NCBI GenBank assembly: GCA_027488845.1
Contig: JAIYBC010000019.1
Coordinates: 1-57,580 of the forward strand
Length of the DNA: 57,580 bases
Origin: Verrucomicrobiales bacterium
GTDB taxonomy: Bacteria; Verrucomicrobiota; Verrucomicrobiia; Limisphaerales; UBA9464
Reading direction: 5' to 3'
The first letter of the stretch is position 1. The number at the start of each line of letters is the position of its first letter. The position numbers and the translations under genes were made by a program. The notes beneath the pieces were generated by a model that saw nothing but the letters and a program-made list of their open reading frames with translations, searched no databases and was not told the origin of the DNA. This document shows, in pieces, positions 1 through 38,792 of this stretch.

Positions 1-282
1 GACATCCGCGCGATGGACGACGTGACCGGCGTCGTGCGGAGCCAGACGGTGCCTACGGAGCCGCCGGCAATCCGTCTGCCGGCACCGGGTGCGGATGGAA
101 GCCTGACCTTGGAAGTGACTGCTGGAGTCGGGCAGCAGGTGGTCGTGGAAACGACGACCGACCTGAGGTCATGGAGCGAAGCCCAACGGGTGACAGGGCA
201 GGGCGGCGGCTCGCCCGTGCGAGTCACCATCACCCCCCAACCTGGCGTCGAAGCCCGCTTCTGGCGAGTTCGGGGGCTTTGA
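1..282 (+). CDS. C-terminal end of a secreted protein (5' end outside window)
   Basis: The reading frame is open from the first base and stops at 280-282, so this is the tail of a gene that begins left of the window. The visible 93 residues end with a module of the pattern 'VVVETTTDLRSW...FWRVRGL'. The same pattern closes the next gene and two others here (ending RFYRLRL and RFFRLRL). Such modules are common at the C-termini of secreted verrucomicrobial proteins and may act in sorting or surface attachment, which is inference. Its function cannot be told from this fragment. The next gene starts 29 bases downstream on the same strand, so the two may be co-transcribed. Confidence 0.75.
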   Translation, partial: DIRAMDDVTGVVRSQTVPTEPPAIRLPAPGADGSLTLEVTAGVGQQVVVETTTDLRSWSEAQRVTGQGGGSPVRVTITPQPGVEARFWRVRGL

Positions 283-311
283 AAACTTTCGATCAGTATT
301 GGGAAAACGTC

Positions 312-27850: not shown

Positions 27851-27878
27851 AGTGAATATAACTATTATTGTGCGACCA
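27851..27878 (-). other. Left attachment site: full dif-like XerCD site
   Basis: Read on the minus strand, this 28-bp AT-rich site has a XerC-like arm (TGGTCGCACAA), a 6-base centre TAATAG and a XerD-like arm (TTATATTCACT). Against E. coli dif I count 7/11, and 8/11 matches in the two arms. A 15-bp core (ctattattgtgcgac, 27862-27876) recurs exactly at 38776-38790. The XerD-like arm lies on the host (lptD) side. Confidence 0.72.
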
Positions 27879-27879
27879 T

Positions 27880-27947
27880 CCTATGGGGGCCGGGTAGCTC
27901 CCGGCACCGCCGCATAGGTTGTCGGGCCGGCCCCCGGGTTTCCGGGG
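27880..27947. other. Nested hairpins next to the left attachment site
   Basis: An outer stem CCTATG/CATAGG (27880-27885 with 27913-27918) encloses GCCGGG/CCCGGC (27889-27894 with 27900-27905). A second hairpin CCCCGG/CCGGGG follows at 27932-27947. It precedes the first phage gene by about 50 bases and may be a folded leader, an origin or a regulatory structure. Confidence 0.45.
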
Positions 27948-27995
27948 TGTCCGGCAGACGGCCGAGGTGAGGCGGAATGCCACCGACAGCCGAAC

Positions 27996-28448
27996 ATGAA
28001 GACGCTCCAGACGCATTTCCGCGTCTCCGTCAGCCCTGCTTTCCAAGGGCTCGACACCCCTCAACGCCACCCCTCCGAAGCCGTAGGCTTCAGAGTCGCC
28101 GCCCAGCTCCGCCGTGAGCTGGAACGCTGCATCGACGCCGCCACGAGCTGCCAGCCGGCAAGCCTGACGGCCAACATGGATCGACTCGCATCCATCCGGG
28201 CAGCCGCCGAGACCATCCTGCCCCTTGTTCCCGAGGGTCAGCGTCTCCGCAGCGACCGAAATCTGGTCCACCCGCTGACGCTCGCCGACTGGATCGAGGC
28301 CGCACGCATCACCGGCATTGCGCACCGCTCGCCGCACTGGGCGCCGATCGGCTGTGACCGACTCGACCACATCGAGGCGAAGTTGGATTCCCTCGCCGCC
28401 CTGATTTGCAAGCTGGGGGTGAACCTGAAGGACGGAGGTGCCCTGTGA
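27996..28448 (+). CDS. Phage early protein of unknown function
   Basis: A 150-residue, mainly helical protein (FRVAAQLRRELERCIDAATSC... ending DHIEAKLDSLAALICKLGVNLKDGG). No family is recognised. It is the first gene of the rightward early operon; its stop overlaps the GTG of the next gene (GTGA). No Shine-Dalgarno sequence is evident near ATG 27996, but GAGGTGAGGCGGA lies about 20 bases upstream. A role in replication or control is guessed from position only. Confidence 0.6.
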   Translation: MKTLQTHFRVSVSPAFQGLDTPQRHPSEAVGFRVAAQLRRELERCIDAATSCQPASLTANMDRLASIRAAAETILPLVPEGQRLRSDRNLVHPLTLADWIEAARITGIAHRSPHWAPIGCDRLDHIEAKLDSLAALICKLGVNLKDGGAL

Positions 28449-28690
28449 ACTGCCTTTCCCTCCTCACTGTGTGCCAGCTCCACGCTCGGACGCTGCACGA
28501 CCTCCGGAAACTCCACGAGGTGGTCACATTCCCGGGAGAACAGCTTCCGCTGGGATCCGATGAACGGATGGACTTTGAAATTGCGTGGCGCCTTCGGACG
28601 AAGGCTGCCGCCGAGACCCTCGCCGAGTGGGACCGACGCCTTCCTCTGATGCGCGAAGCGGTCGACATCGTGAAGGGAGGCCGCCCTTGA
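28445..28690 (+). CDS. Phage early protein of unknown function
   Basis: An 81-residue protein starting at a GTG that overlaps the preceding stop (GTGA) with GGAGG nine bases upstream. It begins with a hydrophobic/helical stretch (NCLSLLTVCQLHARTLHDLRKLHEVV) and ends with VDIVKGGRP. That tail is also the ribosome-binding region of the next gene and is echoed in the following protein's tail (LNIVKGGRQ). No family recognised. Confidence 0.62.
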   Translation: MNCLSLLTVCQLHARTLHDLRKLHEVVTFPGEQLPLGSDERMDFEIAWRLRTKAAAETLAEWDRRLPLMREAVDIVKGGRP

Positions 28691-29043
28691 ACCTTCTTTC
28701 CGAAATCCTCGGATGGACCGTCATCGGACTTCTCGGCGCGGTGTTGGAACTGACCTACCGGAATTTCCGCCTTCGGTGCTGCCTTCAGGATGCCCGGCAA
28801 GAGTTGGTGTCCTGCTACAACGTCCTTCCCGGGGTCGAAATGGTCACGGAATCAGAACTCCCGAAGGACATCCTTTCGGGGACTGTATCCGACAGCGTCC
28901 ACGCGACGATTTCATCCCTTCAGCAACAGTTGAACGCTGACCGGGCTGAACTCGGCCGCACAGTGAGGGAACGCAACGATTTCTATCGTGAGTTGAGCGA
29001 AGCTAGGAGATTGCTCAACATCGTGAAGGGAGGCCGCCAGTGA
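28687..29043 (+). CDS. Phage membrane-anchored coiled-coil protein
   Basis: A 118-residue protein with a TTG start overlapping the preceding stop (TTGA), behind a strong AAGGGAGG. The N-terminus is a membrane segment (LLSEILGWTVIGLLGAVLELTY); residues about 70-110 form a charged coiled coil (ISSLQQQLNADRAELGRTVRERNDFYRELSEARRLLN). The layout, one N-terminal span and a cytoplasmic or periplasmic coiled coil, resembles spanin or scaffold-type small phage proteins, but no family is recognised. Confidence 0.62.
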   Translation: MNLLSEILGWTVIGLLGAVLELTYRNFRLRCCLQDARQELVSCYNVLPGVEMVTESELPKDILSGTVSDSVHATISSLQQQLNADRAELGRTVRERNDFYRELSEARRLLNIVKGGRQ

Positions 29044-29234
29044 CCTCCGAATGGATCGTCCACGTGGGCTGGTTTGCCCCCGGCTCCGGATTCCTCCACC
29101 GCCAGATCCTGCGGGTGAAAGCCCCGACGGAGATGGAAGCCCGGCGCGAGGCCTACCGGAAGCACCGCGACACCCGCGCACCATTCCACGCCTACCAGAC
29201 AGCCGTGGTAATCCCGGCACAGGAGGCTCCATGA
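29040..29234 (+). CDS. Small phage early protein
   Basis: A 64-residue protein (EWIVHVGWFAPGSGFLHRQILRVKAPTEMEARREAYRKHRD...) with a GTGA overlap to the previous gene and ATGA overlap to the next. The central 'VKAPTEMEARREAYRKHRD' looks like the end of a beta-alpha unit seen in many small phage proteins. Function unknown. Confidence 0.6.
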   Translation: MTSEWIVHVGWFAPGSGFLHRQILRVKAPTEMEARREAYRKHRDTRAPFHAYQTAVVIPAQEAP

Positions 29235-29455
29235 AGCAGTTTGAGTTCGATCTTCGGCCGGACTGGATGAGTTGCCGTCACGAGTTTTGCTTCGACTCTC
29301 GCGCCTACGTTCCGGCCGGTGTCGTTTGCTCCGAGTGCGGGGCTCTCATTCTCCAATGGATTCCCCAGCCTCCTTCGGAGCTGGGATACCTATCGGCCGA
29401 CTGGAACTGGAAACTTCAGGGCAATGCCTGGACGACAAAGGAACTCCATGGCTAA
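29231..29455 (+). CDS. Small phage protein with zinc-ribbon-like Cys/His pattern
   Basis: A 74-residue protein with SCRHEFCFD near residue 14-22 and VCSECGALI near residue 35-43, a spacing like a C-x-H/C-x(n)-C-x2-C zinc-binding ribbon. Zinc binding is inferred. AGGAGG directly precedes the ATG, which overlaps the upstream stop as ATGA. Its 3' end overlaps the helicase start by 8 bases. Confidence 0.62.
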   Translation: MKQFEFDLRPDWMSCRHEFCFDSRAYVPAGVVCSECGALILQWIPQPPSELGYLSADWNWKLQGNAWTTKELHG

Positions 29456-30734
29456 GCCTGAACCGAAGAAGCTGCCGCCGATCTACTACGATGCCGGCAC
29501 CGGTGGCAGCACTTACTGGTTCACCATGCCAGACGGCGCCATCGTGCGCCTCGGGTTGGCGGACTTGCAGCGTTGGATGATGCACCACGAGGTCGACACG
29601 ACCGCCCCGCGCGGGGAGCTGTCGCCCTTCGACAAGATCATCCTCCATGCCCAGCGCACCCAGCGCGTGGACTACGCCGGCCCGCTCGCCGGACACCGCA
29701 AGGGCCTGTTCGTGACCTCCGGAGGTCAGCAGGTCCTCGTCACGCGGGAATCGACCGCCTACGCGGCGCCTCAGAAGCTGGGCAAGTTCCCGTTCTGGTC
29801 GGGCTTCCTGAAGGCGCTGTTGAAGGACAAGGAGCAACTGGACGCCGTGATGGACTGGTGGGCCTGCGGACTCCGTCGCCTGATGAAGGGGGAATTCGGC
29901 CCCGGGCAAGCGCTGGTCCTGACCGGTCCTCCAGGCTGCGGGAAAAGCCTGCTCCAACACCTGACTACCGAGATCTTCGGCGGCAGGAAGGCGGACCCGT
30001 TCCGCTACATGACCGGAGCGACCGCCTTCAACGGCGACCTCGCCGAAGCCGAGCATCTGATGATCGAGGACAAGAGTTCCTCGACCGACATCCGGAGCCG
30101 CCGGGAGTTCGGCGCTCGTCTGAAGGAGCTGGTGGTCAATCGCGACATCAGCATCCACCGGAAGGGAGCGCAGGCGATCACCCTTCACACGTTCCGCCGC
30201 GTCACCGTCACCATCAACGACGAGGTGGAGAACCTGAACATTCTTCCGCCGCTCGATGCGTCCATCCTGGACAAGCTGACCCTGCTGAAGTGCCACGACG
30301 CCACGGCGGCGCTGAAGAAGACCGAGCCCGAGACGTGGAAGGCGTTCGTCTCCGAGCTGCCGGCGGTCCGGGCCTTCCTCATGCGCCGGGAGATCCCGAA
30401 GGACCGGGCCTGCCCCCGGATGGGAGTGAAGGCGTTCCACAACGGGGAGATTCTCGCGGCCGCGTCCACACTCGAGCCCCAGAACCGACTTCTGGCGCTC
30501 ATCGACCAAGTCATCCCTCGGGATGAACTGCACCCGGCCGGGATCTTCACGGCCGAGGAATTGGAAATGCGCCTCCGTAAGAGCCCGTTCGGATTCGCGG
30601 TCGAGCGTCTGTTGTCCTTTAGCAGCGCGTGCGGGGTGTACCTCGGTCGCATCGCCAACGAGAAGCCCCAGAGGGTCGAGAAGCGCGTGAGGAACGGTCA
30701 GACCCGCTGGTACATCCGGCCGGCCGAGGAATAG
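29448..30734 (+). CDS. Phage SF3/DUF5906-type replicative helicase
   Basis: A 428-residue P-loop ATPase. Walker A is GPPGCGKS (about 161-168), Walker B HLMIEDK (about 202-208), then RSRREFGARLKELVVNRDISIHRKGAQ and the sensor/motif C region RVTVTINDEVENL. This order matches SF3-like helicases and the DUF5906 primase-helicase family. The N-terminal 120 residues show no primase active-site motif, so a host primase or polymerase would be needed. It ends the early operon and a terminator follows 27 bases after its stop. ATG 29448 overlaps the preceding gene by 8 bases. Confidence 0.82.
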   Translation: MAKPEPKKLPPIYYDAGTGGSTYWFTMPDGAIVRLGLADLQRWMMHHEVDTTAPRGELSPFDKIILHAQRTQRVDYAGPLAGHRKGLFVTSGGQQVLVTRESTAYAAPQKLGKFPFWSGFLKALLKDKEQLDAVMDWWACGLRRLMKGEFGPGQALVLTGPPGCGKSLLQHLTTEIFGGRKADPFRYMTGATAFNGDLAEAEHLMIEDKSSSTDIRSRREFGARLKELVVNRDISIHRKGAQAITLHTFRRVTVTINDEVENLNILPPLDASILDKLTLLKCHDATAALKKTEPETWKAFVSELPAVRAFLMRREIPKDRACPRMGVKAFHNGEILAAASTLEPQNRLLALIDQVIPRDELHPAGIFTAEELEMRLRKSPFGFAVERLLSFSSACGVYLGRIANEKPQRVEKRVRNGQTRWYIRPAEE

Positions 30735-30760
30735 CCCCCCACCCCCTCCACCTGCAAAGA

Positions 30761-30785
30761 AGCCCCGAGGTATCCCCTCGGGGCT
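30761..30785 (+). terminator. Rho-independent terminator after the phage helicase
   Basis: Perfect 10-bp stem (agccccgagg with cctcggggct), loop tatcc, then TTCCTTTTCC. It separates the early operon from the lone secreted-protein gene downstream. Confidence 0.9.
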
Positions 30786-30818
30786 TTCCTTTTCCCGGGC
30801 CAGAGCTATCCCGGGGAC

Positions 30819-31337
30819 GTGAACCGCACCGCTGCCGCTCTACTACTCGCCGCCCTGCCCTGCTCCGCTGACCGCATCATCGAGCTTTTCTCGAAAGACG
30901 GTGTAAGGCCACGGCATGAAGTGCCCGAGGGAAAGCTGGTTACGATCATCGGCCGCAGTTACGAGCAGTCGACAGACAACAGCGGACCGGGAGCCAACAT
31001 TCAGGTGGTGATGATCCGGAACGGAAGCCGATTCACCAACCAATGGAGTTCGTTTGAATCCATAGGAAACACCGTTGCAGGACCGGCGGAGTTGACGTTT
31101 CGGATGTCCATCGAGATTCCGCGCCTGACCAACTCACCCGCGTTTTGCCTTTTGCGCGAATGGGAGCCGACGCCGACGCCGGCAGAAACGACGCCAGTGG
31201 TTCCGGCCGGATCCGGGGCTGTCCTGACCCTCGAAACGTCCTCCGACCTCACAGCGTGGCAGCCTGCGCTTGGGACCAACCTTCCCGCCGTGGGAACCAA
31301 CCGCTTCTTTAGGCTCCGTCTGGAACCGGCGCGGTGA
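30819..31337 (+). CDS. Phage-borne secreted protein with verrucomicrobial C-terminal module
   Basis: A 172-residue protein with a signal peptide (NRTAAALLLAALPCSAD) from a GTG start. The middle is beta-rich. The C-terminus 'LTLETSSDLTAW...NRFFRLRLEPAR' repeats the module that ends three host secreted proteins in this window. It is alone on the + strand between the early operon terminator and the leftward structural operon, and its last 29 bases overlap tail-to-tail the 77-residue gene. This could be cargo acquired from the host, or a virus protein shown on the infected cell. Upstream GTG choice is moderate, as no strong ribosome site is visible. Confidence 0.65.
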   Translation: MNRTAAALLLAALPCSADRIIELFSKDGVRPRHEVPEGKLVTIIGRSYEQSTDNSGPGANIQVVMIRNGSRFTNQWSSFESIGNTVAGPAELTFRMSIEIPRLTNSPAFCLLREWEPTPTPAETTPVVPAGSGAVLTLETSSDLTAWQPALGTNLPAVGTNRFFRLRLEPAR

Positions 31338-31542
31338 GAGCCCGGGCAAGGGCTTCCTGCATCTTCGGAGAGGGGGCCAACCGGTACTTGGCGCACAGGT
31401 CGGCGGCGCGAATAGCCAACTCCGACCTAGGGCATCTGTCAGCCTCGTCAATCGCCACGAATTCCGGGGCTTCCTGCGTGCCGACAAATGCGCCGACGAC
31501 GTTTCCGGCGTCGTCTTCAGCAATGGTTAGAATCGTCTTCAT
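31309..31542 (-). CDS. Last gene of phage structural operon, unknown function
   Basis: A 77-residue soluble-looking protein (KTILTIAEDDAGNVVGAFVGTQEAPEFVAIDEADRCPRSELAIRAADLCAKY...). It starts in an ATGA overlap with the preceding gene and is the final gene of the leftward run, overlapping tail-to-tail the secreted-protein gene. No family recognised. Confidence 0.62.
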   Translation of the reverse strand: MKTILTIAEDDAGNVVGAFVGTQEAPEFVAIDEADRCPRSELAIRAADLCAKYRLAPSPKMQEALARALTAPVPDGA

Positions 31543-31982
31543 TCCACAAGGCAGTATCGAAGTTCGTATTCGATCGAATCGGCAGTGTCGTGCTCGACGG
31601 AAATCACAAAGCTCGGTCCCAAAACGGACGCATTGCAGATCAGCGCTGCGGAGGTAGATCCACCCGGGTAGATTTCAATGGTTCTGGTTGATGCGGTAGT
31701 TAGAGACGACGAATCCAGATGCGCTGTATTCTGTCCGATGCTGCACCCTGTCGTGCAGCGAATCTTCACACCGCCCGCTGTGATTGTGTAAATCCTGAGA
31801 GTTACGATTATTCCCTTATAACCCGGATTTGTAAGGACAGCGGTTGATGTGTTCGCGGTCCGAAAGGCTCGGGCCAATGCGGTAACCTCGTTGTACGAAC
31901 GCTTGAAAAGCGCGCGCTTTTGAACCTCCAAAATGGAATCTTCCTGCTGAGGAAAAGCGGTTGGTGGGATGTAATTACTCAT
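31539..31982 (-). CDS. Phage beta-rich protein, AT-richer than its neighbours
   Basis: A 147-residue protein. A short N-terminal helix is followed by about 100 residues of beta-prone sequence (VLTNPGYKGIIVTLRIYTITAGGVKIRCTTGCSIGQ...TRTIEIYPGGSTSAALICNASVLGPSFVISVEHDT). The DNA is visibly AT-richer than flanking genes. This shape, with small polar residues and paired strands, suits a spike or minor capsid protein. The stop couples as ATGA to the next gene. Confidence 0.65.
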   Translation of the reverse strand: MSNYIPPTAFPQQEDSILEVQKRALFKRSYNEVTALARAFRTANTSTAVLTNPGYKGIIVTLRIYTITAGGVKIRCTTGCSIGQNTAHLDSSSLTTASTRTIEIYPGGSTSAALICNASVLGPSFVISVEHDTADSIEYELRYCLVE

Positions 31983-31985
31983 GCG

Positions 31986-32306
31986 TCAGGGAGAAGGGAT
32001 GAAAGGATTATCGGCAACCACAATGGAACCATCTCCACCGGTAACTGTGACTCGTCCGTCCGACCAAACCATTCGGTTGTAGTTGTTGTTTCCCCAGATC
32101 CCAACGACGTGAGGCTTCGCGGCTTCACTCAGCGCTTGGGCCAAGGCCTGCGTTCCCTTGCTGTCCTCGATCCGGGATCCGATTTGACCGATGACCGCAC
32201 CCTGGGGGATGGCGTCGGACTTTTCCGCCGACGGCTTGCGCGACCGGAAGAACCAGACGCCGCCGAACACGGCGCCGATTAGGAGCCAGATCCAAGAAGC
32301 TTTCAC
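31986..32306 (-). CDS. Phage membrane-anchored protein
   Basis: A 106-residue protein with an N-terminal membrane segment (KASWIWLLIGAVFGGVWFF) followed by RSRK and an exposed domain ending in Gly/Asn-rich beta strands (WGNNNYNRMVWSDGRVTVTGGDGSIVVADNP). It starts at a GTG overlapping the lipoprotein's stop (GTGA). Probably a virion membrane or cell-envelope protein; no family recognised. Confidence 0.66.
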   Translation of the reverse strand: MKASWIWLLIGAVFGGVWFFRSRKPSAEKSDAIPQGAVIGQIGSRIEDSKGTQALAQALSEAAKPHVVGIWGNNNYNRMVWSDGRVTVTGGDGSIVVADNPFIPSP

Positions 32307-32602
32307 CGGATCTTCCCGAGGATGGAGTCGAGAGCCTTCAAGGCCTCGACAAGGTTGGTTCCCCCGCCCTGCTGTTCCAGACCATCGGTGCCGATGGACT
32401 GTGTCTTGCCGTTCGACAGCTTTTGCCGTTCCACGGTGGACGTGGCAGGCCACACCGCGAAGGTGCGCGCCGAGGTTTCGGAGATGGTGACGGTGCCGTT
32501 GGTGCCTTTGGTCTCCGTTCGGATGGTTGGCCGGTTGTAGGCGCAGCCAGAGACCAGAAGCAGGGAGACGGCAACGAGGATGAGAACGAGGGGAGAGGTC
32601 AC
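32303..32602 (-). CDS. Phage lipoprotein
   Basis: A 99-residue protein with a lipoprotein signal: hydrophobic LVLILVAVSLLLVSGC, with lipobox LVSGC (Cys about residue 19). The mature part is short and polar (YNRPTIRTETKGTNGTVTISETSARTF...) with a helical end (NLVEALKALDSIL). Lipoproteins in phage genomes often act as outer-membrane spanins, but it could also be an exclusion or receptor-blocking protein. It begins at GTG overlapping the previous stop. Confidence 0.72.
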   Translation of the reverse strand: MTSPLVLILVAVSLLLVSGCAYNRPTIRTETKGTNGTVTISETSARTFAVWPATSTVERQKLSNGKTQSIGTDGLEQQGGGTNLVEALKALDSILGKIR

Positions 32603-32811
32603 GATATGAGTTCGGTGAGTTTGTGAGCGGTGCCGCCGGCAATGCCGCCGGCGCCGACGATGAACGCGGCCAGCTTCAACCACGCACCGCGGAGCTTTTC
32701 CAGTTCACCCTCGATGCGCTCGATGCGCTCGGTGTTGGCAGACTGGCGCTCCTCGATCCGGATCAATCGGTCTCGGATGTCGCGGATCATCTGTTCTTCG
32801 GTGTCGGTCAT
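32599..32811 (-). CDS. Small coiled-coil/one-span membrane protein (holin-like candidate)
   Basis: A 70-residue protein: a charged coiled coil (EEQMIRDIRDRLIRIEERQSANTERIERIEGELEKLRGAW) followed by one membrane segment (LKLAAFIVGAGGIAGGTAHKL). This is the same layout as many small phage membrane proteins next to lysis genes. ATGA overlap precedes it and GTGA overlap follows. Holin function is a guess. Confidence 0.68.
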   Translation of the reverse strand: MTDTEEQMIRDIRDRLIRIEERQSANTERIERIEGELEKLRGAWLKLAAFIVGAGGIAGGTAHKLTELIS

Positions 32812-33227
32812 CGGCGGGTTTTCTTCAGGATCCAGAGTGCGAGAAGGACAAGGAGTCCTCCGGGGATGGCGAGGCCAAGAAAGACGCGGAGCCCCATGAA
32901 GCGCTCCGGCACAACGGCGTTGGCGATTCGGTTGAACGGACGAAGGACGCCAGACCACCAGCTCGGCGGTGCCACCGACAACTCGGGGTTGGCGGGAGTC
33001 TCCGGTACCCGATAGGGAGTTTCGGACGGACCTACAATCGGACCGGTTTCCAAGACGGTGGACGCCTCTGGGGACACAGGCAGACCGAACGGACCAAACA
33101 GCACGGGAGCCGGAGGATTGGTTGGGTTGGTCTCAACCTCGCAGCGGCCGGGAAACGCGAAGCCGCCGCGCAGGCAGTATTCCTGCCCGCCGATGGTCAC
33201 ATCGCTTCCTGACTTGGAGACGTTCAC
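32808..33227 (-). CDS. Tail-anchored phage membrane protein
   Basis: A 139-residue protein. The N-terminal part contains GGQEYCLRGGFAFPGRCEVETN, two Cys that may pair, then a Pro-rich linker, an amphipathic stretch (WWSGVLRPFNRIANAVVP) and a C-terminal membrane segment (LRVFLGLAIPGGLLVLLALWIL) with KKTRR tail. One of five consecutive proteins here with a C-terminal span. GTG start overlaps the previous stop. Confidence 0.7.
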   Translation of the reverse strand: MNVSKSGSDVTIGGQEYCLRGGFAFPGRCEVETNPTNPPAPVLFGPFGLPVSPEASTVLETGPIVGPSETPYRVPETPANPELSVAPPSWWSGVLRPFNRIANAVVPERFMGLRVFLGLAIPGGLLVLLALWILKKTRR

Positions 33228-33649
33228 GCCGTGAGCTTTCGACGAATCCAGACGCCGCCGCCGAGGTACCAGAACAGCGCTCCCAGCCCGCCGACCCACA
33301 CCCACCAAGGCAGAGCATCCCAAATGAACTTCAGCGGCCAATTGATGCCGCTCCGAATGGTCCCGGTGACGTTGTCGTACCCACTGGAAAACCCTTCGTT
33401 GAAATCGGAGTTAATTTGCTCCTCAACGGTGCCGTAGTCGGCCGCCGCTTCGTTTACAGCCGCCTGACTCAGCCAACGGTCGGCCGCCGCCTGCCCCTGC
33501 TGAGACTGAATGCGTGCGTAGGTCGACTGATTGAGCTGCCCGCGCTGCGCGTCCAGAGCGTCGGACTGCGCTTGCAGCTCTTCCTGCGACATCCCGTTGG
33601 AGCCGATCCAATCCCGGGGATCCCACCACGATTTCGGACGCATATTCAC
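33224..33649 (-). CDS. Tail-anchored phage membrane protein
   Basis: A 141-residue protein: Trp-rich N-terminus (KSWWDPRDWIGSNG), a long Gln/Ala helical region (EELQAQSDALDAQRGQLNQSTYARIQSQQGQAAADRWLSQ) and a C-terminal membrane segment (PWWVWVGGLGALFWYLGGGVWI) ending RRKLTA. The GTG start overlaps the previous stop; an ATG two codons on is an alternative. Probably a virion membrane protein. Confidence 0.7.
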   Translation of the reverse strand: MNMRPKSWWDPRDWIGSNGMSQEELQAQSDALDAQRGQLNQSTYARIQSQQGQAAADRWLSQAAVNEAAADYGTVEEQINSDFNEGFSSGYDNVTGTIRSGINWPLKFIWDALPWWVWVGGLGALFWYLGGGVWIRRKLTA

Positions 33650-33933
33650 TTTCGGCCTTTCGTCACGTACCACAGCGCACCGATGAGCCCGAGGCCGCCG
33701 GCAACCCACCAGACCCACATGGGGACGGAGCTGGAGGAATCACCGGACTCCGCGTCGAGGCTGGAGCCGCCTACGGCAACGTTGTTGAAGATGCTTCCCC
33801 GGTAGCCGCTGCCGCGCTGGGCCGCCGACGACGACGCGTCCGAATTGGCCGCGAGGCTGGTCTGGTCGGACAACGACAGGTTGGGAATTCCCATGACCTT
33901 CGCCGGGTCAAAGATGGTGTTGAAGGCTTTCAC
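33646..33933 (-). CDS. Tail-anchored phage membrane protein
   Basis: A 95-residue protein starting at a GTG in a GTGA overlap. A Ser/Ala/Asn-rich ectodomain (SLSDQTSLAANSDASSSAAQRGSGYRGS) precedes a C-terminal membrane segment (PMWVWWVAGGLGLIGALWYVT) with KGRK tail. Likely virion membrane protein. Confidence 0.7.
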   Translation of the reverse strand: MKAFNTIFDPAKVMGIPNLSLSDQTSLAANSDASSSAAQRGSGYRGSIFNNVAVGGSSLDAESGDSSSSVPMWVWWVAGGLGLIGALWYVTKGRK

Positions 33934-34220
33934 TTGTTGGAGCGAAGGGCCACGAGAGCGGCAATGACGAGAGCACCGAGGACGACGGCGGGAAGGAGCT
34001 TGTCGAACCACGCACCAGAGCCCGAGGAATCAGCCAGGGTGACGGTGGTGTTGCCCGTGTCGCCTTGGACTTGGCTGTTGCTGGTCGTGCTGTTGAAGGA
34101 GTCCGTGTACTGCTGCTGGTTCGTCACGACCGACGAAGAGCGGTCGCCGTAGTCCAACAGCTTCGCGACCGGGAACGGGCGAACCTCGGAAAGGTTGGTG
34201 CTGAGGGAATCGGCGGTCAT
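33930..34220 (-). CDS. Tail-anchored phage membrane protein
   Basis: A 96-residue protein with a polar, Ser/Thr/Asn/Gln-rich ectodomain (SVVTNQQQYTDSFNSTTSNSQVQGDTGNTT) and a C-terminal membrane segment (LLPAVVLGALVIAALVAL) ending RSNK. ATGA overlap with the preceding gene. Likely virion membrane protein. Confidence 0.7.
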   Translation of the reverse strand: MTADSLSTNLSEVRPFPVAKLLDYGDRSSSVVTNQQQYTDSFNSTTSNSQVQGDTGNTTVTLADSSGSGAWFDKLLPAVVLGALVIAALVALRSNK

Positions 34221-34822
34221 GGCGTGATGGAGGAATGGCAGCCGAGAGCGTAGACGCGTCCGGCCCAGTTCAGATCCGGAGTGGTGCCGTAATTGTCGTG
34301 AGACACTTCAAGGAAGACGGTGTCCGCGAGCTGGGTCACAGGCAGCGGCGCAGAGTAGATCCGCGTCAGTAGATCCTTCGTGAGGCTGGTGCGGATTCGG
34401 CAGTTGAAGACCATCAGGCCCGCCGTGTTGAACAGGCTGCGCGGATTCCAATCGGGCGCAGCGCTGGCGGAGTCGATTTCGACCGTCTCGACGCAATACT
34501 GGGGACCGACCACCTGTTGGGTGGAAATGCCGAACGAATCCGAGGCCGCGAGAATGGACGCCAGATCGAGGTTTCCTTCCTGCGTGGAAACGCTCCAGAC
34601 CTCGCGGCCCTTGTATCGAAGGCCGATCCGCAACTTCTCGTTGTAGTTCACACCGGCGCCCGAGATGCGGCCGAAGTAGATCCGGTGAAACGGAAACGAC
34701 GCCGTCAACGGAAGCTCGATCCGCGTCTTGCCGTAGGGCGTGGCCAGCAACGCCGGATCCGGCGTGTATGGCGTCACCTGTCCGACGGTGACGGACTGGA
34801 CGGTGGAGGTGGGCGCGTTCAC
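34217..34822 (-). CDS. Phage structural protein, possible minor capsid or penton
   Basis: A 201-residue beta-rich protein without membrane segment (PYGKTRIELPLTASFPFHRIYFGRISGAGVNYNEKLRIGLRYKGREVWSVS...). It lies in the capsid cluster, two genes downstream of the candidate major capsid gene, and its strand-rich make-up fits a single-jelly-roll minor capsid or penton protein (inference). GTG 34822 overlaps the previous stop (GTGA). Confidence 0.66.
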   Translation of the reverse strand: MNAPTSTVQSVTVGQVTPYTPDPALLATPYGKTRIELPLTASFPFHRIYFGRISGAGVNYNEKLRIGLRYKGREVWSVSTQEGNLDLASILAASDSFGISTQQVVGPQYCVETVEIDSASAAPDWNPRSLFNTAGLMVFNCRIRTSLTKDLLTRIYSAPLPVTQLADTVFLEVSHDNYGTTPDLNWAGRVYALGCHSSITP

Positions 34823-35079
34823 TTGCGGCGCATCACGAGCATGAGCACGACGACGGCGGCAATTCCTCCGCCGATGAGAATCGGCGTCTGCTGATACCAC
34901 GGCACTGGGGACGCCGTTGGCTGGCGCTGAACCACCGCTTCCTGTTGGCGGGTCATGTTGTCCGCCACGACAATGCCCACATCGCGGGCGAGTCCGAGAA
35001 TGGAGGTTGCCCAGTTCTGCGGGTTGGTGCCCACGTCGGGCGTTCCGGTCGAGGTCTCTTTGGTGCGGGTCTGTTTCAT
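34819..35079 (-). CDS. Tail-anchored phage membrane protein
   Basis: An 86-residue protein: polar N-terminus, amphipathic helix (NWATSILGLARDVGIVVADNM), Gln-rich segment and a C-terminal membrane span (TPILIGGGIAAVVVLMLVM) with RRK. It is the first gene after the hairpin that follows the capsid gene. Its leader is C-rich (CCCCCTCCACCTCCTCCCA) and has no Shine-Dalgarno sequence. Confidence 0.7.
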   Translation of the reverse strand: MKQTRTKETSTGTPDVGTNPQNWATSILGLARDVGIVVADNMTRQQEAVVQRQPTASPVPWYQQTPILIGGGIAAVVVLMLVMRRK

Positions 35080-35091
35080 TGGGAGGAGGTG

Positions 35092-35140
35092 GAGGGGGCC
35101 GGGTCGGCGGCAGCCTCATGGCTACCTCGCCGGCCCCCTC
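35092..35140 (-). terminator. Strong hairpin after the capsid gene (attenuator or RNA-stability element)
   Basis: Perfect 11-bp arms GAGGGGGCCGG (35092-35102) and CCGGCCCCCTC (35130-35140) in the 84-base gap between the capsid gene and the next gene. No T-run follows in the direction of transcription, so it is more likely an attenuator or a 3'-end stabiliser of capsid mRNA than a full terminator. Confidence 0.55.
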
Positions 35141-35163
35141 GGTTGAACCCTGCCGGGTGAGTG

Positions 35164-36258
35164 TCAGACCGCCACGGCCAACAGCTTCAGTTCGTCCAGG
35201 CTGTTGGGAAGGAGACGGTGGGAGGTGATTTCGACCGTGGTCGAGGTGTCCGCCAGATCCGCGAAGGTCAGGCGCAGCTTGTCGCCGGCGAGCACCTTGG
35301 AATCCAGATTGATGGTCGAGTTGACGCTGTACGCGTCCTGACCGTCCTCCTCGGTGAAGAAGTCGAAGAAGGATTCCTGACGGGGCTGCATCGTCGGCAG
35401 CGTGGTCGCGCCGCTGAGGACAGCCGGGAACGGATCCCGGCTGGAATCGTTGGCGGCTTCCTGAAACAGGTCATCGGTCTCTTCCAACTGATCGGTGCCG
35501 TACTTGAGCTGGTACGAACCGGTCGAGGTGAGGGGGAACGTGCCCGCGAAGGTCGTCGTGTCGTAGGCCTGAAGGAGGAAGCCAGTCAGGACGCCGACGG
35601 TGGGGAACTCGTACGTGAAACGGGCCGTGCTCGGCGCGATGACCGTCTGAGACAGTTCCCACGGAAGATACGGGGTCTTCCGGGCCGGGGATCCGGACAC
35701 GATGGGGACTTCGCGGTAGATCGCCTGAACCTTAGCAGCAACGCCAGAGATGGCGCCGGCGCTGAGGAGGTTTCCGGAGGTCTCGAAATCCACCTGAAGG
35801 TACGGGTCGTCGTTCAGGTTCGACTCGTCGAGGGGGATCGAAAGGAAGTTCCCGAACGGCTCCGCAACCTGCGGATGACGCATCGGAATTCGGAAGGTGG
35901 CGGTGTAGGCGGTCGAGACCACAAGGCCGGCCGGCATCGCCTGAAGGGTGTTCCGATCCAGCTTCACGCCCACGTTCGTCAGGAATGAAGCCAGGTTGGC
36001 GCCGGTGAGGTCGATGCAATCGCGATTTCCGGCGCGGTCGTTCACGTGGAACTTGATGCGCTTGATCGCGGCGAGGATGCCGAAGCGCGCGGAAACCTTG
36101 GACGCGGTAGCAGCGCTGGAGTCGGTGGTGAAGTTGACGCGAAGGAGGAGCGATTCCAGACGGCGCGGCTGTCGAGACAGGCGCCACTGGGCGGAGGATC
36201 CGAGGGCAACCGATCCCGAGGACAGATTGATGAACTCCTTTTTCCGGGTGAAGACCAT
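35164..36258 (-). CDS. Candidate double-jelly-roll major capsid protein
   Basis: A 364-residue protein, the largest in the structural operon, with beta-rich sequence in two similar-sized halves. The first half has 'LESLLLRVNF', 'AIKRIKFHVNDRAGNRDCIDLTGANLASFL' and 'YTATFRIPMRHP'; the second has 'GVLTGFLLQAYD', 'GSYQLKYGTDQLEETDDLF' and 'DKLRLTFADLADTSTTVEI'. The length (PRD1 P3 has 395 residues, PM2 P2 269), fold pattern, neighbouring packaging ATPase and membrane proteins support a PRD1/PM2-type capsid. There is no direct homology evidence. A perfect hairpin lies just downstream and the leader is C-rich without Shine-Dalgarno. Confidence 0.72.
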   Translation of the reverse strand: MVFTRKKEFINLSSGSVALGSSAQWRLSRQPRRLESLLLRVNFTTDSSAATASKVSARFGILAAIKRIKFHVNDRAGNRDCIDLTGANLASFLTNVGVKLDRNTLQAMPAGLVVSTAYTATFRIPMRHPQVAEPFGNFLSIPLDESNLNDDPYLQVDFETSGNLLSAGAISGVAAKVQAIYREVPIVSGSPARKTPYLPWELSQTVIAPSTARFTYEFPTVGVLTGFLLQAYDTTTFAGTFPLTSTGSYQLKYGTDQLEETDDLFQEAANDSSRDPFPAVLSGATTLPTMQPRQESFFDFFTEEDGQDAYSVNSTINLDSKVLAGDKLRLTFADLADTSTTVEITSHRLLPNSLDELKLLAVAV

Positions 36259-36289
36259 GGGTGTTGTTTGGAGGGGGTTGCGTTGAGGG

Positions 36290-36412
36290 TTACTTCCCGA
36301 GAAGGGACATCACCTTGGACTTCAGCTTCGGGTAGAACTCGATGACGACGATGGTCGTCAGGACGGACATCCAGAAGCCTTTGGACATCAGGACGGATTT
36401 GATGGCGTTCAT
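36290..36412 (-). CDS. 40-residue phage membrane protein
   Basis: ATG to TAA gives a 40-residue peptide with a Lys start, one membrane segment (GFWMSVLTTIVVIEFY) and a Lys-rich end (PKLKSKVMSLLGK). It sits 31 bases upstream of the capsid gene. Small membrane peptides beside the capsid gene are a feature of PRD1-like phages. Supported by composition and tight spacing only. Confidence 0.62.
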   Translation of the reverse strand: MNAIKSVLMSKGFWMSVLTTIVVIEFYPKLKSKVMSLLGK

Positions 36413-36448
36413 TCGTGGAATCGGCGTTTTGCTTTCGCGGTTTTCACG

Positions 36449-36546
36449 TCACCACGGAATCCGGTTTTGCATCAGTCCCGCCATCAGGGCCGGAATCGGT
36501 GCCAGCGGCACCTTCAGCCACGGACACAGGCCCCGCGCTTTGTTCT
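36449..36546 (-). CDS. Possible small hydrophobic phage ORF overlapping the ATPase end
   Basis: In the -1 frame relative to the ATPase, the stretch encoding ...NKARGLCPWLKVPLAPIPAL and on to ...QNRIPW (stop 36449-36451) is hydrophobic. By hand count about 80% of its codons end in G or C, like the real genes nearby. No ATG or GTG heads it; CTG is the only candidate. It may be a separate tiny gene or a frameshifted extension of the ATPase. The left end is approximate. Confidence 0.35.
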
Positions 36547-37119
36547 GCAGACGAACCGGAATTGCGGCAGCCGTCGGACCTCCTCGACATCGAACCCAAA
36601 CCCCCTCGGGAACTCCAAGGCGGTGTCGTCGGTCATCTGGAAACAGACGACTTCCGTCAATTGGAGCCGCACCCGGTTGTTGAGGAGGTTCGGGGATTGC
36701 CCGATGAAGATGGAATCGAGGCCACGACGACGCCCACGCCAGACGAGGGACGACAGCTCGGGCGGGATTTTGTGCCCGTCGATGTGCTCTTGTAGCTCGT
36801 CGACCATGAAGAGCTTTCTCCCGGGAATCCTTTGGGAAAGCTCGAACGCGTACCGGGTGAAAAAGGCAAACCCTTGGTCCGGGGTTTCAAACTCCGTGAA
36901 CGGTTCGAAGCACACCCAGCCGGTTCCGATTTCCCGGTCGAGGTCGGCGAAGGTTCGGCAGATCGGAAGCCCCAGCCGATGGGCGAATTCCTCCTCCGGG
37001 TCAAAGATGAACCGCACCTTGGCCGGCAGGTTGGCCAGCACCTTCAATGCGAAGGTGGTCTTGCCCGATCCGGATCCGCCGAAGATTCCAAGCCGGTATG
37101 CCGGATGGTCAATTTGCAC
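36514..37119 (-). CDS. Phage packaging ATPase (A32/FtsK-HerA superfamily)
   Basis: A 201-residue P-loop ATPase. Walker A GGSGSGKT is at 14-21, Walker B KLFMVDE near 104, and a later RGRRRGLDSIFIGQSP stretch and VVCFQMTDD match the pattern of HerA/FtsK-like viral genome-packaging ATPases (PRD1 P9 type, about 200-230 residues). No membrane segment is present, unlike the Zot/pI proteins of filamentous phages. GTG 37119 is chosen because AAGGAG precedes it; it overlaps the upstream stop by 11 bases. Confidence 0.82.
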   Translation of the reverse strand: MQIDHPAYRLGIFGGSGSGKTTFALKVLANLPAKVRFIFDPEEEFAHRLGLPICRTFADLDREIGTGWVCFEPFTEFETPDQGFAFFTRYAFELSQRIPGRKLFMVDELQEHIDGHKIPPELSSLVWRGRRRGLDSIFIGQSPNLLNNRVRLQLTEVVCFQMTDDTALEFPRGFGFDVEEVRRLPQFRFVCRTKRGACVRG

Positions 37120-37411
37120 CGGGTGTCTCCTTTTTGAAGGTGGCGCACGCGGTGTGAACTCCAAGGAACCATGTCCCAAGAATCGCAACGGCGCATCCCG
37201 TTGGGGAAATCTCCGGATCCATGCCGTGCTCGGCGAGGACGTGCGGGGCCAGCTCGCCGAGAATGTCGCGCATCTCCGGAGACAGAGCCGCCCCTTCGAT
37301 CACAGGGGCCGCCACGGACTGGTCAACACCGGCAGCAATGGCCGCCGCCTTGACCTTGTTTCGGCCGTACTGGTCGGCCAAGCCGGCTCCAGCCCTTGCA
37401 ATCTTCGCCAC
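37109..37411 (-). CDS. Phage protein with late hydrophobic segment
   Basis: A 100-residue protein from GTG (TTG three bases upstream is an alternative): Ala-rich helices (KIARAGAGLADQYGRNKVKAAAIAAGVDQSVAAP) then a hydrophobic stretch (PTGCAVAILGTWFLGVHTACATF) and KKETPGAN. The same frame stays open to an ATG at 37705, giving 198 residues, but that added part is Pro-rich and by hand count only about 45% of its codons end in G or C, so I think it is a shadow of the overlapping gene 37300-37731. The stop overlaps the ATPase start by 11 bases. Confidence 0.55.
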   Translation of the reverse strand: MAKIARAGAGLADQYGRNKVKAAAIAAGVDQSVAAPVIEGAALSPEMRDILGELAPHVLAEHGMDPEISPTGCAVAILGTWFLGVHTACATFKKETPGAN

Positions 37412-37731
37412 CAAGCCAGGAGGAAGAGAAGGACGAGGTGCCCGAGGAGGTTCGCCCGGATTTCCGGCCACCGGTTCCCGAGCAGGATTCTTCCCGTCCG
37501 ATCCAGCAGCTTTGCTGTAGCGACCATGAATTGGGGGCCGCCCCGGTCCGCGAGGCGGCGCCCCATCGCCTGAAGGACGGGATCCGGAGACGCCCGCAGC
37601 TGCGATTGCAGCAGCTCCGACAGGAGGGATTGAAGGACTTGGGTCTGCTTTCGCTGGTCCCGGATCCGACGACGGAGGCAGCGCCAATTCTGGAATCGTT
37701 TCCATGCGTCAAGGAAGGTTCCAGAGTTCAT
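37300..37731 (-). CDS. Phage helical membrane-associated protein
   Basis: A 143-residue protein, Arg/Leu/Gln-rich and helical (NSGTFLDAWKRFQNWRCLRRRIRDQRKQTQVLQSLLSELLQSQ), with a hydrophobic segment (RANLLGHLVLLFLLAWW). By hand count about 76% of its codons end in G or C against about 45% in the overlapping frame 37414-37705, which is why I prefer this frame. It overlaps the previous gene by 23 bases and the next by about 110 bases. Function unknown. Confidence 0.55.
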   Translation of the reverse strand: MNSGTFLDAWKRFQNWRCLRRRIRDQRKQTQVLQSLLSELLQSQLRASPDPVLQAMGRRLADRGGPQFMVATAKLLDRTGRILLGNRWPEIRANLLGHLVLLFLLAWWRRLQGLEPAWPTSTAETRSRRRPLLPVLTSPWRPL

Positions 37732-37936
37732 CAAAGACGGACCGGGCAAGACCCGGTGCGGAGGTGGTCGGAGCTTCCGACGGAGCCGAGGCCGGCGCGG
37801 ACGGTGCCGCTGGGGCCTTCGGTCGTGACGCCTTGGCTTTACGGCCTACGTCCTCGGGCTTGTTCGGCCCCTTTGCGGCTGCGGGCGCCTCTGGGGGAGG
37901 CACGGCGGGATTCTTGGGATCGGTTTTTTCGCTCAC
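37709..37936 (-). CDS. Phage Pro/Ala-rich small protein
   Basis: A 75-residue protein (SEKTDPKNPAVPPPEAPAAAKGPNKPEDVGRKAKASRPKAP... ending SVFDELWNLP) from a GTG start. Low-complexity, disordered-looking with a short helical end. Codons are GC-ending. Its 5' part overlaps the 3' part of the RHH gene by 98 bases in another frame. Possibly a scaffold or linker protein. Confidence 0.5.
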   Translation of the reverse strand: MSEKTDPKNPAVPPPEAPAAAKGPNKPEDVGRKAKASRPKAPAAPSAPASAPSEAPTTSAPGLARSVFDELWNLP

Positions 37937-38183
37937 GCCGTGAGCCTTGCCCGTCGGCTGTGCGCCCGTCGCGGCCGCGCTCGGGGTCGATTCTGCCGCG
38001 AACCCATTCCATGCGCTCCTCGGTCTGACGCGCGATGATTGGAAGGCCGATCTGGACCAGCTCGCGCATGATCTGCGCTTCGGTGGTCCCAGAGATGGAA
38101 CAGATTTCCCGGATTCTTCGGCCCCAAGGGGCGGGAATGCGGATCGTGAACTTTTCCCAGATGGTTTTTTCGAGTGGCTTCAT
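37839..38183 (-). CDS. Ribbon-helix-helix DNA-binding regulator of the phage
   Basis: A 114-residue protein. Residues about 8-50 (WEKFTIRIPAPWGRRIREICSISGTTEAQIMRELVQIGLPII) form a ribbon-helix-helix: the beta strand TIRIP, then two helices. The Arg-rich tail overlaps the next gene in another frame, and may be less constrained. It is the first gene of the leftward operon, so it is a natural repressor or activator of it. Leader is C-rich without Shine-Dalgarno (CCCCACCCCTGCC before ATG). Confidence 0.7.
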   Translation of the reverse strand: MKPLEKTIWEKFTIRIPAPWGRRIREICSISGTTEAQIMRELVQIGLPIIARQTEERMEWVRGRIDPERGRDGRTADGQGSRRERKNRSQESRRASPRGARSRKGAEQARGRRP

Positions 38184-38764
38184 GGCAGGGGTGGGGCTTC
38201 GCCCCGGGACGTTGGAGCGGTTTTTCGCTTTGGACTCGGCTGGTGGGGCGGGGGGCGCGGGGGGCGGGGAGGCCGAAAAAGGAAACGCCCCGGTCGGAGC
38301 TGAGGGCTTCAGTAGTCCAACCGGGGCGAATCACCATCCGAGGCCGTAGGGCGCTCGGGGTCGCACCGCTGCGTTGCCCCTATCCTCCCTGACGGCGAGA
38401 TGAATTTGGACGCCCTGCCCTGACCGCGCAACGGGGAGTCGACTTTCAAAACACCCCCCCACCCCCCCCACCCCTCTACCTCCGGAAATGCGATTTTCCC
38501 TAGGTGAGGGGGTGGGGGGGTATTTCTACGTTTATCGCAGGAGAGAGGAGAGATAGGGAGGGGTGGGAAATTTTTTTCTACGCCGGTTTCCTCCCCCGCG
38601 CCCCCACCTTCCAAACGCGCCCCGATCACCAGCCGAGCACAAAGCGCTAAACCGTTGTTCCCCAGTTGTTCACGGCCGCAGGCCGCACCCTTCACAGGGG
38701 CATGGGGAAAACCGGTGAACAGCCGGTGAACAAGTCTCCCCAGAAGGGTGGGAGCCTCCGAAAG
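38184..38764. other. Phage non-coding control region with G/C-tract hairpins
   Basis: About 580 bases with no credible gene. It holds C7-A-C8-A-C4 (38454-38474) facing GGGGG-T-GGGGGGG (38508-38520) as a near-perfect inverted repeat with about 22 bases between, then purine-rich AGGGAGGGGTGGG with TTTCCTCCCCC opposite. It probably contains the leftward promoter and possibly the replication origin. One 128-codon minus-strand frame here is judged spurious. Confidence 0.55.
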
Positions 38765-38792
38765 GAATCGAATATCTATTATTGTGCGACAG
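38765..38792 (-). other. Right attachment site: dif-like with degenerate XerD arm
   Basis: The exact core ctattattgtgcgac is at 38776-38790. On the minus strand the XerC-like arm (CTGTCGCACAA) and centre TAATAG are kept, but the XerD-like arm, on the phage side, is degenerate (ATATTCGATTC; 4/11 matches to E. coli dif). This is the arrangement expected from a phage attP with a poor XerD arm. Confidence 0.68.

What the first reader, a model, noticed from the sequence alone, without database searches (positions are those of the whole stretch)
35164..36258. Highly divergent candidate major capsid protein
Length, beta-rich halves and position between packaging ATPase and membrane-protein genes point to a double-jelly-roll capsid, but no residue-level motif makes it certain. 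It may represent a new capsid group.
Basis: inference. Interest (0 to 1): 0.7.

Follow-up and report, generated by a model that had tools for sequence, protein, structure and literature searches.

The report
Tailless-virus capsid in a bacterial provirus
A gene in a Verrucomicrobia-type bacterial chromosome encodes the capsid protein of a tailless virus whose 10.9-kb genome is inserted at a site resembling the chromosome's dimer-resolution site, and it belongs to a divergent group of such proviruses distantly related to tectiviruses.

Summary
The ORF is real but lies on the minus strand (35164-36258, 364 aa). Profile comparison adds a sequence link: MCPs of actinobacterial tectiviruses (Toil type), probability 96.9 over 282 columns.

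The gene sits in a 10.9-kb provirus between direct repeats at 27858 and 38772; two near-identical relatives carry the empty site. The target is dif-like and conserved in part of the host's order. No integrase was found in the element, so host XerC/D most likely integrated it.

Eight other genomes of the order carry relatives: 4 with a tyrosine recombinase beside a tRNA gene, 3 between dif-like sites (two of these with a degenerate second copy), 1 on a contig that may be circular. MCP and packaging ATPase occur in 9 of 9; no PolB was found.

So: a new, deeply divergent group of tectivirus-related temperate viruses, not a new fold. Double-jelly-roll proviruses at dif are known in Vibrio and Flavobacterium, and Verrucomicrobia/PVC members of other groups are in print; direct comparison with those was not possible.

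The parts
27858..27876 (.). attL: 19-bp direct repeat, dif-like site (host XerD-side arm plus core)
   Evidence: repeat D12; only 2 sites within 3 mismatches in the 5.39-Mb genome; empty-site breakpoints; dif pattern in the order
38772..38790 (.). attR: second copy of the repeat, 1 mismatch in 19; outside the core its XerD side departs from the dif consensus
27858..38790 (.). provirus, 10,914 bp from repeat to repeat
   Evidence: flanks are a host LptD-like gene 25590-27794(+) and a dehydrogenase-like gene 38939-41662(-) (coordinates; both names from recall, not searched)
35164..36258 (-). major capsid protein, double jelly roll, 364 aa
   Evidence: AF2 plus structural comparison; profile match to Toil-type MCPs
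36514..37188 (-). A32/FtsK-HerA-type packaging ATPase (TTG start as drawn, true start uncertain)
   Evidence: homolog near the MCP gene in 9 of 9 elements; profile match to PM2 P9 and Toil ATPase
37109..37705 (-). protein before the ATPase, low-complexity N-terminus; possible assembly factor by position
   Evidence: proteins in the same position elsewhere; phmmer links 5 of them, and 2 others separately, but not the window copy
34819..35079 (-). 86-aa protein with C-terminal transmembrane helix
   Evidence: homologs in L010 and L022
34217..34822 (-). about 200-aa protein (GTG start overlapping the previous stop), possible minor capsid protein
   Evidence: position only, homology across elements not shown
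33930..34220 (-). membrane protein candidate, 'DSFNxT' motif plus C-terminal TM helix
   Evidence: family in 8 of 9 elements; 7 of the 8 aligned
33646..33936 (-). small protein with C-terminal hydrophobic stretch
   Evidence: 4 of 9 elements
33224..33643 (-). 139-aa 'PWWVW' membrane protein
   Evidence: family in 8 of 9 elements; 7 of the 8 aligned
32808..33341 (-). protein with C-terminal TM helix (TTG start as drawn)
32303..32602 (-). small lipoprotein-like protein (LLLVSGC)
   Evidence: 3 of 9 elements
31539..31982 (-). 147-aa beta-sandwich protein, candidate minor virion protein
   Evidence: 4 of 9 elements; weak AF2 model, non-specific structural matches
29319..30734 (+). DUF5906 / D5-like primase-helicase, replication module on the opposite strand
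   Evidence: Pfam PF19263 7.1e-8, PHROG 1156 DNA primase 1.1e-7
27996..28448 (+). 150-aa protein shared with the L023 element

Best explanation
The ORF encodes the major capsid protein of a temperate, tailless double-jelly-roll virus integrated in the chromosome of a Verrucomicrobia-type bacterium. Shown by computation: the double-jelly-roll fold; remote sequence homology to Toil-type tectivirus MCPs; an adjacent packaging-type ATPase; a 10.9-kb element between direct repeats at a dif-like site that is empty in relatives; related elements in 8 other genomes. Inferred from known viruses of this fold: the MCP forms trimeric pseudo-hexagonal capsomers of an icosahedral shell, the small one-helix proteins sit in an internal membrane, and the ATPase packs the DNA. 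Inferred from the att sites and from no integrase having been found: the excised DNA is a circle carrying a dif-like site, which host XerC/XerD recombine with chromosomal dif. Replication probably uses the DUF5906-type helicase rather than protein-primed PolB.
For: Fold: Z 25.6/25.1 to PR772/PRD1 P3 over 308/305 residues; best Foldseek E 1.5e-13. Sequence: MCP profile A2 vs 5 actinobacterial tectivirus MCPs, probability 96.9, score 80.4, 282 columns; 9 leave-one-out runs 95.2-96.8; 40 column-shuffled profiles at most 19.5. Against Toil alone score 52.7; 60 shuffles at most 21.0; of 191 ORFs (100 aa or more) of six DJR-virus genomes the Toil MCP ranks first and the next scores 21.5. ATPase profile vs PM2 P9 97.4 and Toil 96.8. 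MCP and ATPase both in 9 of 9 elements. Integration: repeats; unique in the genome; two relatives with the empty site; dif pattern in 79 of 320 order genomes, reversed-pattern control 0; host XerC/XerD-like recombinases; no recombinase among 21 ORFs of the element scanned with Pfam; the 4 relatives with a recombinase have it beside a tRNA gene. Possible free form: contig L022, 126-bp terminal direct repeat and a dif-like site with 2 mismatches.
Against: The model is only moderately confident (62 residues under pLDDT 50, mostly 267-325). Single-sequence comparisons to Toil-type MCPs are weak (0.1-0.8% for 7 members, 32.7% and 42.3% for 2); the link needs the family profile. A2 vs single PRD1, GC1, PM2, FLiP and STIV MCPs gives under 1%. 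The att repeat is short: an exact 14-bp repeat at a similar distance also flanks the MCP in the window. In G012, 68 bp beside the core do not align. The strict dif pattern is found in only 4 of the 9 element-bearing genomes and 5 of the 19 of the genus; the second sites of L020 and L021 are degenerate and no exact repeat of 13 bp or more was found there. Circularity of L022 rests on the terminal repeat alone. No lysis gene was recognised, so the provirus could be defective. No virion has been seen.
Confidence: 0.88

Rival explanations
1. The protein is a cellular double-jelly-roll enzyme (DUF2961 / GH172 family), not a capsid protein.
For: These share the fold; Z 11.4-11.9 to 7v1v, 4kq7, 8ah3, 8ic8.
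Against: Phage and archaeal-virus MCPs PRD1, STIV and PM2 score higher (Z 19.9-25.6); the gene lies near a packaging-type ATPase gene in 9 of 9 elements, here inside a mobile element with att sites; no Pfam match for any of the 9 members.
Confidence: 0.02
2. It is a PM2-type (Vinavirales) provirus, i.e. one of the 'extremely divergent' Verrucomicrobium prophages already reported in PMC9502842.
For: Same type of host, same ATPase-MCP-membrane-protein order, ATPase profile slightly better with PM2 P9 than with Toil (97.4 vs 96.8); some tailless Vibrio prophages of the order Vinavirales sit at dif.
Against: MCP profile vs PM2 P2 0.5% against 96.9 for Toil-type MCPs (there a 5-row profile, so the two tests are not equally sensitive); structure Z 19.9 for PM2 vs 25 for PRD1; MCP of 364 aa, PM2 P2 269 aa.
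Confidence: 0.12
3. It belongs to the bacterial (PVC) branch of the 'STIV group' of PMC5894146, whose figure legend lists PVC-group members.
For: Structure Z 23.8 to STIV MCP; the legend names PVC bacteria; tyrosine recombinases occur in that group.
Against: Sequence profile vs STIV MCP 0.5%; ATPase match to the STIV Walker-motif ORF weakest of five (72.6). The bacterial members themselves could not be compared.
Confidence: 0.2
4. Integration is by an unrecognised recombinase of the element rather than by host XerC/D.
For: Most small ORFs of the element have no family; 4 of 9 related elements carry tyrosine recombinases.
Against: No recombinase family among the 21 element ORFs scanned with Pfam; the elements in which none was found are those with dif-like sites; host Xer-like proteins present.
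Confidence: 0.1
5. The element is a degenerate remnant that no longer makes particles.
For: No recognised lysin or regulator; the XerD side of attR departs from the dif consensus.
Against: MCP, ATPase and membrane-protein ORFs are intact; none of the 9 MCP frames has an internal stop; one relative may be a circular free genome.
Confidence: 0.2

Closest known systems
Actinobacterial tectiviruses: Rhodococcus phages Toil and P19, Streptomyces phage Forthebois, Microbacterium phages SCoupsA and Bee17
   Same: Remote, profile-detectable MCP homology (probability 96.9); Toil ATPase profile match 96.8; in Toil the ATPase gene lies shortly before the MCP gene (one small gene between)
   Different: Toil is a linear genome with an annotated DNA polymerase; here integrated DNA, no PolB found, a DUF5906 helicase instead, another host phylum; most single members show no detectable similarity
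Enterobacteria phages PRD1/PR772 (Alphatectivirus)
   Same: Closest solved MCP structures (Z 25.6/25.1); P9 ATPase gene shortly before the MCP gene
   Different: No sequence similarity of MCP (0.2%); PRD1 has terminal protein, DNA polymerase and linear DNA
PM2 and other Vinavirales, including Verrucomicrobium prophages of PMC9502842
   Same: Double-jelly-roll MCP, best ATPase profile match (97.4), gene order
   Different: MCP not detectably similar to PM2 P2, structurally more distant (Z 19.9)
Vibrio NO16-like prophages (PMC9966536) and Flavobacterium phiCjT23-like prophages (PMC9719478)
   Same: dif-like sites at the ends, integration by host XerC/D proposed by the authors (passages)
   Different: Other MCP lineages; phiCjT23 is an ssDNA virus; other hosts

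Membership tests
Bamfordvirae-type double-jelly-roll MCP | two stacked jelly rolls | tested here: met
   Z up to 25.6 over 308 residues; model range 1..355
Bamfordvirae-type double-jelly-roll MCP | trimeric capsomer in an icosahedral shell | not testable with these tools
   no multimer prediction or virion data
Tectiviridae | MCP homologous to tectivirus MCPs | tested here: met
   Toil-type profile 96.9; not detectable against single PRD1 or GC1 sequences
Tectiviridae | P9-type packaging ATPase | tested here: met
   Toil 96.8, GC1 91.7, PRD1 75.8
Tectiviridae | protein-primed family-B DNA polymerase | tested here: not met
   no PolB among the 21 ORFs of the window element given to Pfam; the only ORF of comparable size, 471 aa, is a DUF5906 helicase
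Tectiviridae | linear genome with inverted terminal repeats | tested here: not met
   element bounded by direct repeats; none of the 25 inverted-repeat pairs shown (of 34) joins its two ends; state of the free genome not known
Tectiviridae | internal lipid membrane | not testable with these tools
   several one-helix proteins are compatible
Vinavirales (PM2-like) | PM2-type MCP | tested here: inconclusive
   sequence 0.5%, structure Z 19.9; published Verrucomicrobium MCPs not available
Vinavirales (PM2-like) | P1-like spike/penton protein | not tested
   no P1 comparison made
Turriviridae / STIV group | STIV-type MCP and ATPase | tested here: inconclusive
   MCP sequence 0.5%, ATPase 72.6, structure Z 23.8; bacterial members not available
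Finnlakeviridae (FLiP) | no packaging ATPase (as stated in PMC5894146) | tested here: not met
   packaging-type ATPase present
Finnlakeviridae (FLiP) | FLiP-type MCP | tested here: inconclusive
   sequence 0.1%, structure Z 15.8
Xer-exploiting integrated element (IMEX) | flanked by dif-type sites at the chromosomal dif | tested here: met
   repeats, empty site, conserved pattern; that the site lies at the terminus was not tested
Xer-exploiting integrated element (IMEX) | no own integrase | tested here: met
   no recombinase family among 21 element ORFs scanned with Pfam; window element not in the integrase cluster
Xer-exploiting integrated element (IMEX) | XerC/D-dependent recombination | not testable with these tools
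   needs mutants or purified recombinases; host genes present

The most novel reading that the evidence does not exclude
A new family-level (or higher) lineage of temperate tectivirus-related viruses specific to one Verrucomicrobiota order: 10-14-kb, probably circular DNA without protein-primed polymerase, with a shared capsid/ATPase/membrane-protein module but interchangeable integration modules, so that sister capsids alternate between host XerC/D at dif and their own tyrosine recombinases at tRNA genes.
Probability: 0.5. Interest if true: 0.62.

Novelty: new variant of a known kind. Interest (0 to 1): 0.5.

Why it matters
PRD1, GC1 and Toil tie tectivirus-type capsids to linear genomes with a DNA polymerase gene. 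Here a remotely homologous capsid module rides on integrated DNA with a helicase-type replication gene in another bacterial phylum, which bears on how structural and replication modules of this virus kingdom were exchanged. The 9-sequence profile is a search handle for proviruses whose MCPs match nothing in Pfam or PHROGs, and the dif target makes some of them findable from the integration site.

Tried and rejected
Single-sequence searches found nothing: IMG/VR with 6 queries (3 MCPs; 3 ATPases), phages by tblastn (2 MCPs; 2 ATPases), plasmids, genome contigs with the MCP. Only some of the 9 MCPs and 9 ATPases were so used. PDB by sequence: two chance hits, E 1.5.

Second fold job (147-aa protein, 4 rows): pLDDT 65, pTM 0.59. 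Best Z 9.4 to a Thermococcus protease entry, picornavirus capsid proteins 7.3-8.5, a phage jelly-roll protein (3j4u) 7.7; in BFVD 51 matches at E 0.001 or better, the best (1.6e-5) an uncharacterised tailed-phage protein. It is a beta sandwich; a penton role is not shown. PRD1 P31 is not listed, which proves nothing.

Cellular DUF2961 enzyme: rejected, lower Z and viral context. FLiP type: rejected, an ATPase is present. The 200-aa protein after the MCP was first thought a conserved penton; phmmer links only L009, L020 and L021 among such proteins, so the claim was dropped. An ORF open across the joined ends of L022 was first taken as support for a circle; it runs only 33 bases past the joint and four other frames are open there too, and no exact end-to-end overlap was found, so only the 126-bp repeat counts. 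Two further clusters (8 and 7 elements) lie antisense over the ATPase gene and were not counted as genes.

Full report
OBSERVATION. The span 35164-36258 carries one ATG-started ORF of 364 aa on the minus strand; the plus strand there is interrupted by a stop. The window is a whole contig of a 5.39-Mb, 69-contig genome. The two named relatives found through the LptD-like protein (98% identical) are metagenome bins, one titled Verrucomicrobiales bacterium (pond), the other Akkermansia muciniphila, so the host is taken as a Verrucomicrobia-type bacterium. The window protein has no match in Pfam, PHROGs or NCBIfam, none of its 8 relatives has one in Pfam or PHROGs at E 0.01; by sequence the PDB gave two chance hits at E 1.5; tblastn in the phage and plasmid collections gave nothing.

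RELATIVES. A search of 96 related genomes, own included, found 5 with the protein. With a 5-row profile, 9 of 320 genomes of the order, own included. With the 9-row profile, 5 of 384 drawn from the class, all of them already known and of the same order, and 1 of 387 drawn from the phylum, the own. The profile was built from these members, so they match by construction, and only the best candidates of each genome were scored; the counts are lower bounds. All 9 elements have a homologous ATPase gene; in L007 it lies on the other strand from the MCP gene.

STRUCTURE. AlphaFold2 on the 9-row alignment gave pLDDT 69.7 and pTM 0.78; the segments under 50 are 190-193, 235-239, 267-292 and 303-325. 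The 50 best Foldseek matches in the PDB (E 1.5e-13 to 1e-11) are capsid proteins of PR772, PRD1, an iridovirus, PBCV-1 and STIV. The VIA realignment gives Z 25.6 (PR772, 308 residues, 3.0 A), 25.1 (PRD1), 23.8 (STIV), 19.9 (PM2), 19.2 (PBCV-1), 15.8 (FLiP) and 11.4-11.9 for cellular DUF2961-type enzymes. The best viral predicted structures are the MCPs of Bacillus phage Wip1 and Gluconobacter phage GC1 at 15% and 14% identity.

SEQUENCE LINK. Profile A2 against single MCPs gives 0.2% PRD1, 0.2% GC1, 0.5% PM2, 0.1% FLiP, 0.5% STIV, but 90.9% for Rhodococcus phage Toil over 279 columns. Controls: 60 shuffles of Toil reach score 21.0, and of 191 ORFs of 100 aa or more from the six virus genomes the Toil MCP ranks first (52.7) and the next scores 21.5. 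Against a profile of five actinobacterial tectivirus MCPs (Toil, the others found and fetched) the probability is 96.9 over 282 columns; dropping each of the 9 rows in turn gives 95.2-96.8; 40 column-shuffled profiles reach 19.5 against 80.4. Single members do not show it: 7 give 0.1-0.8%, two 32.7% and 42.3%. PRD1 alone against that profile gives 6.1%, but one sequence is a weaker query than nine, so I draw no ranking from this. ATPase profile A3: PM2 P9 97.4, Toil 96.8, GC1 91.7, PRD1 75.8, STIV Walker-motif ORF 72.6.

ELEMENT. A 19-bp repeat (one mismatch, 15 bp exact) lies at 27858 and 38772, 10,914 bp apart. An exact 14-bp repeat at a similar distance also flanks the MCP, so the repeat alone is weak; the empty site decides. 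In G012 and G013, 94-96% identical over the flanks, the left alignment ends at window 27876 and 27880 and the right one begins at 38858 and 38770, with one copy of the core between; in G012, 68 bp beside the core do not align. Of 11 loci of the genus compared (18 of 19 genomes have the LptD-like gene), 8 show both flanks within one stretch of about 5 kb and 3 (L032, L033, L039) only the LptD side. Within 3 mismatches the core occurs only at these two places of the genome, and its control nowhere.

DIF. Reversed, the core region reads GTCGCACAATAATAGTTATATTC, which resembles dif (the E. coli site is recalled). The pattern CGCACAATNNNNNTTATATTNA occurs in 79 of 320 genomes of the order, once in 78 and twice in one (G211), against 0 for the pattern read backwards. 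It misses many genomes: 5 of the 19 of the genus and 4 of the 9 element carriers have it; G007 and G008 have a variant at the same place. That the site is at the terminus was not tested. The host has XerC/XerD-like recombinases on C63 and C10; the first passes the tyrosine-recombinase subfamily cut-off (NF001399), neither passes the XerC or XerD equivalog cut-off.

INTEGRATION IN RELATIVES (mismatches to the dif consensus over 17 positions). Window: 0 at 27853 and 5 at 38767. L023: 5 at 6129 and 0 at 16156, with an exact 15-bp repeat. L021: 5 at 4042 and 0 at 16502. L020: 3 at 2594 and 4 at 14895. For L020 and L021 no exact repeat of 13 bp or more was found at these sites, and hits with 4-5 mismatches also occur elsewhere in the loci, so these two are likely rather than shown; no empty site was sought for the relatives. 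L022: contig of 14,255 bp with a 126-bp terminal direct repeat and one dif-like site with 2 mismatches; the last five bases lie outside the repeat and no exact end overlap was found, so 'circular' is possible, not certain. L007, L008, L009 and L010 carry phage-integrase-family genes (E 3.9e-7, 5e-7, 1.6e-8 and 1.2e-3, the last below Pfam's cut-off but in one phmmer cluster with the others). In all four a tRNA gene lies next to the recombinase: Met, Val, Leu, Val. L007 and L009 have 46-bp and 23-bp flanking repeats that overlap the 3' ends of these tRNA genes; the far ends of L008 and L010 are not resolved. On the MCP tree of 9 rows the two integration modes need 3 changes, of which well-supported branches force 2; shuffled labels need about as many (mean 3.2), that is, the mode is not clustered on the tree. 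The ATPase tree needs 2 and is mostly unresolved.

OTHER GENES. Clusters across the 9 elements: MCP 9, ATPase 9, two small membrane-protein families 8 each, integrase 4, 147-aa beta protein 4. Replication differs: a DUF5906 helicase in the window, a DnaB-like protein in L007 with a homolog in L010, unassigned in the large proteins scanned from L009, L020, L021, L022 and L023. Pfam was run on 21 ORFs of the window element: no PolB, recombinase or lysin.

PRIOR ART. PMC5894146 (abstract, sections 9, 10, 12, 13, 14 and a term search read) defines six DJR groups, and its STIV-group legend lists PVC bacteria. PMC9502842 (section 16 part 1 and passages) reports eight 'extremely divergent' Verrucomicrobium prophages in Vinavirales. 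PMC9966536, PMC11630473 and PMC9719478 (passages) report DJR prophages at dif in Vibrio and Flavobacterium; PMC11630473 leaves open whether host recombinases are used there. PMC8812541 (passages) describes the cellular DJR homologs. PMC3025954 (passages) predicted dif in three of three Verrucomicrobia. In the listings (12 to 20 papers shown each) I saw no title on tectivirus-like dif-integrated proviruses of Verrucomicrobia; the library lacks most subscription papers. I could not compare with the PVC or Verrucomicrobium sequences of the two key papers, so novelty of the lineage is probable, not shown.

The circularity of L022 was weakened.

VERDICT. The kind is known. The capsid lineage, its replication gene and its dif-type integration in this host are a new variant as far as could be checked.

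Noticed in passing
window 6808-7164 (-), near tRNA genes 8042-8400: Phage_integrase-family match (E 4.7e-6) about 21 kb from the provirus, close to two tRNA genes; perhaps another element.
   Followed up: no
L082 (G000:C11:250632-251234): Host genome encodes an integron integrase above the curated cut-off (TIGR02249, 430 bits against 265).
   Followed up: no
L022 1-14255: Possibly circular 14.1-kb relative; between ATPase and MCP it has an opposite-strand ORF (10611-11147) that looks by eye like a PIN-domain protein.
   Followed up: partly
L007 8706-8954; L010 8463-8984: Small genes resembling by eye toxin-antitoxin parts inside the elements.
   Followed up: no
L023 6719-8074 (-): 451-aa protein with TDTGTT repeats and a Pentapeptide_2 match (6.1e-8); possible fibre or spike.
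   Followed up: no
L009, L020, L021: Two protein families after the MCP are shared by these three and not by the window element.
   Followed up: no
L078 (CAMASJ010000021.1): Bin titled Akkermansia muciniphila holds an LptD-like protein 98% identical to this host's; the title may be a wrong label.
   Followed up: no
G211:C63 and G211:C141: The only genome of 320 with two strict dif-pattern sites; could hold another dif-integrated element.
   Followed up: no
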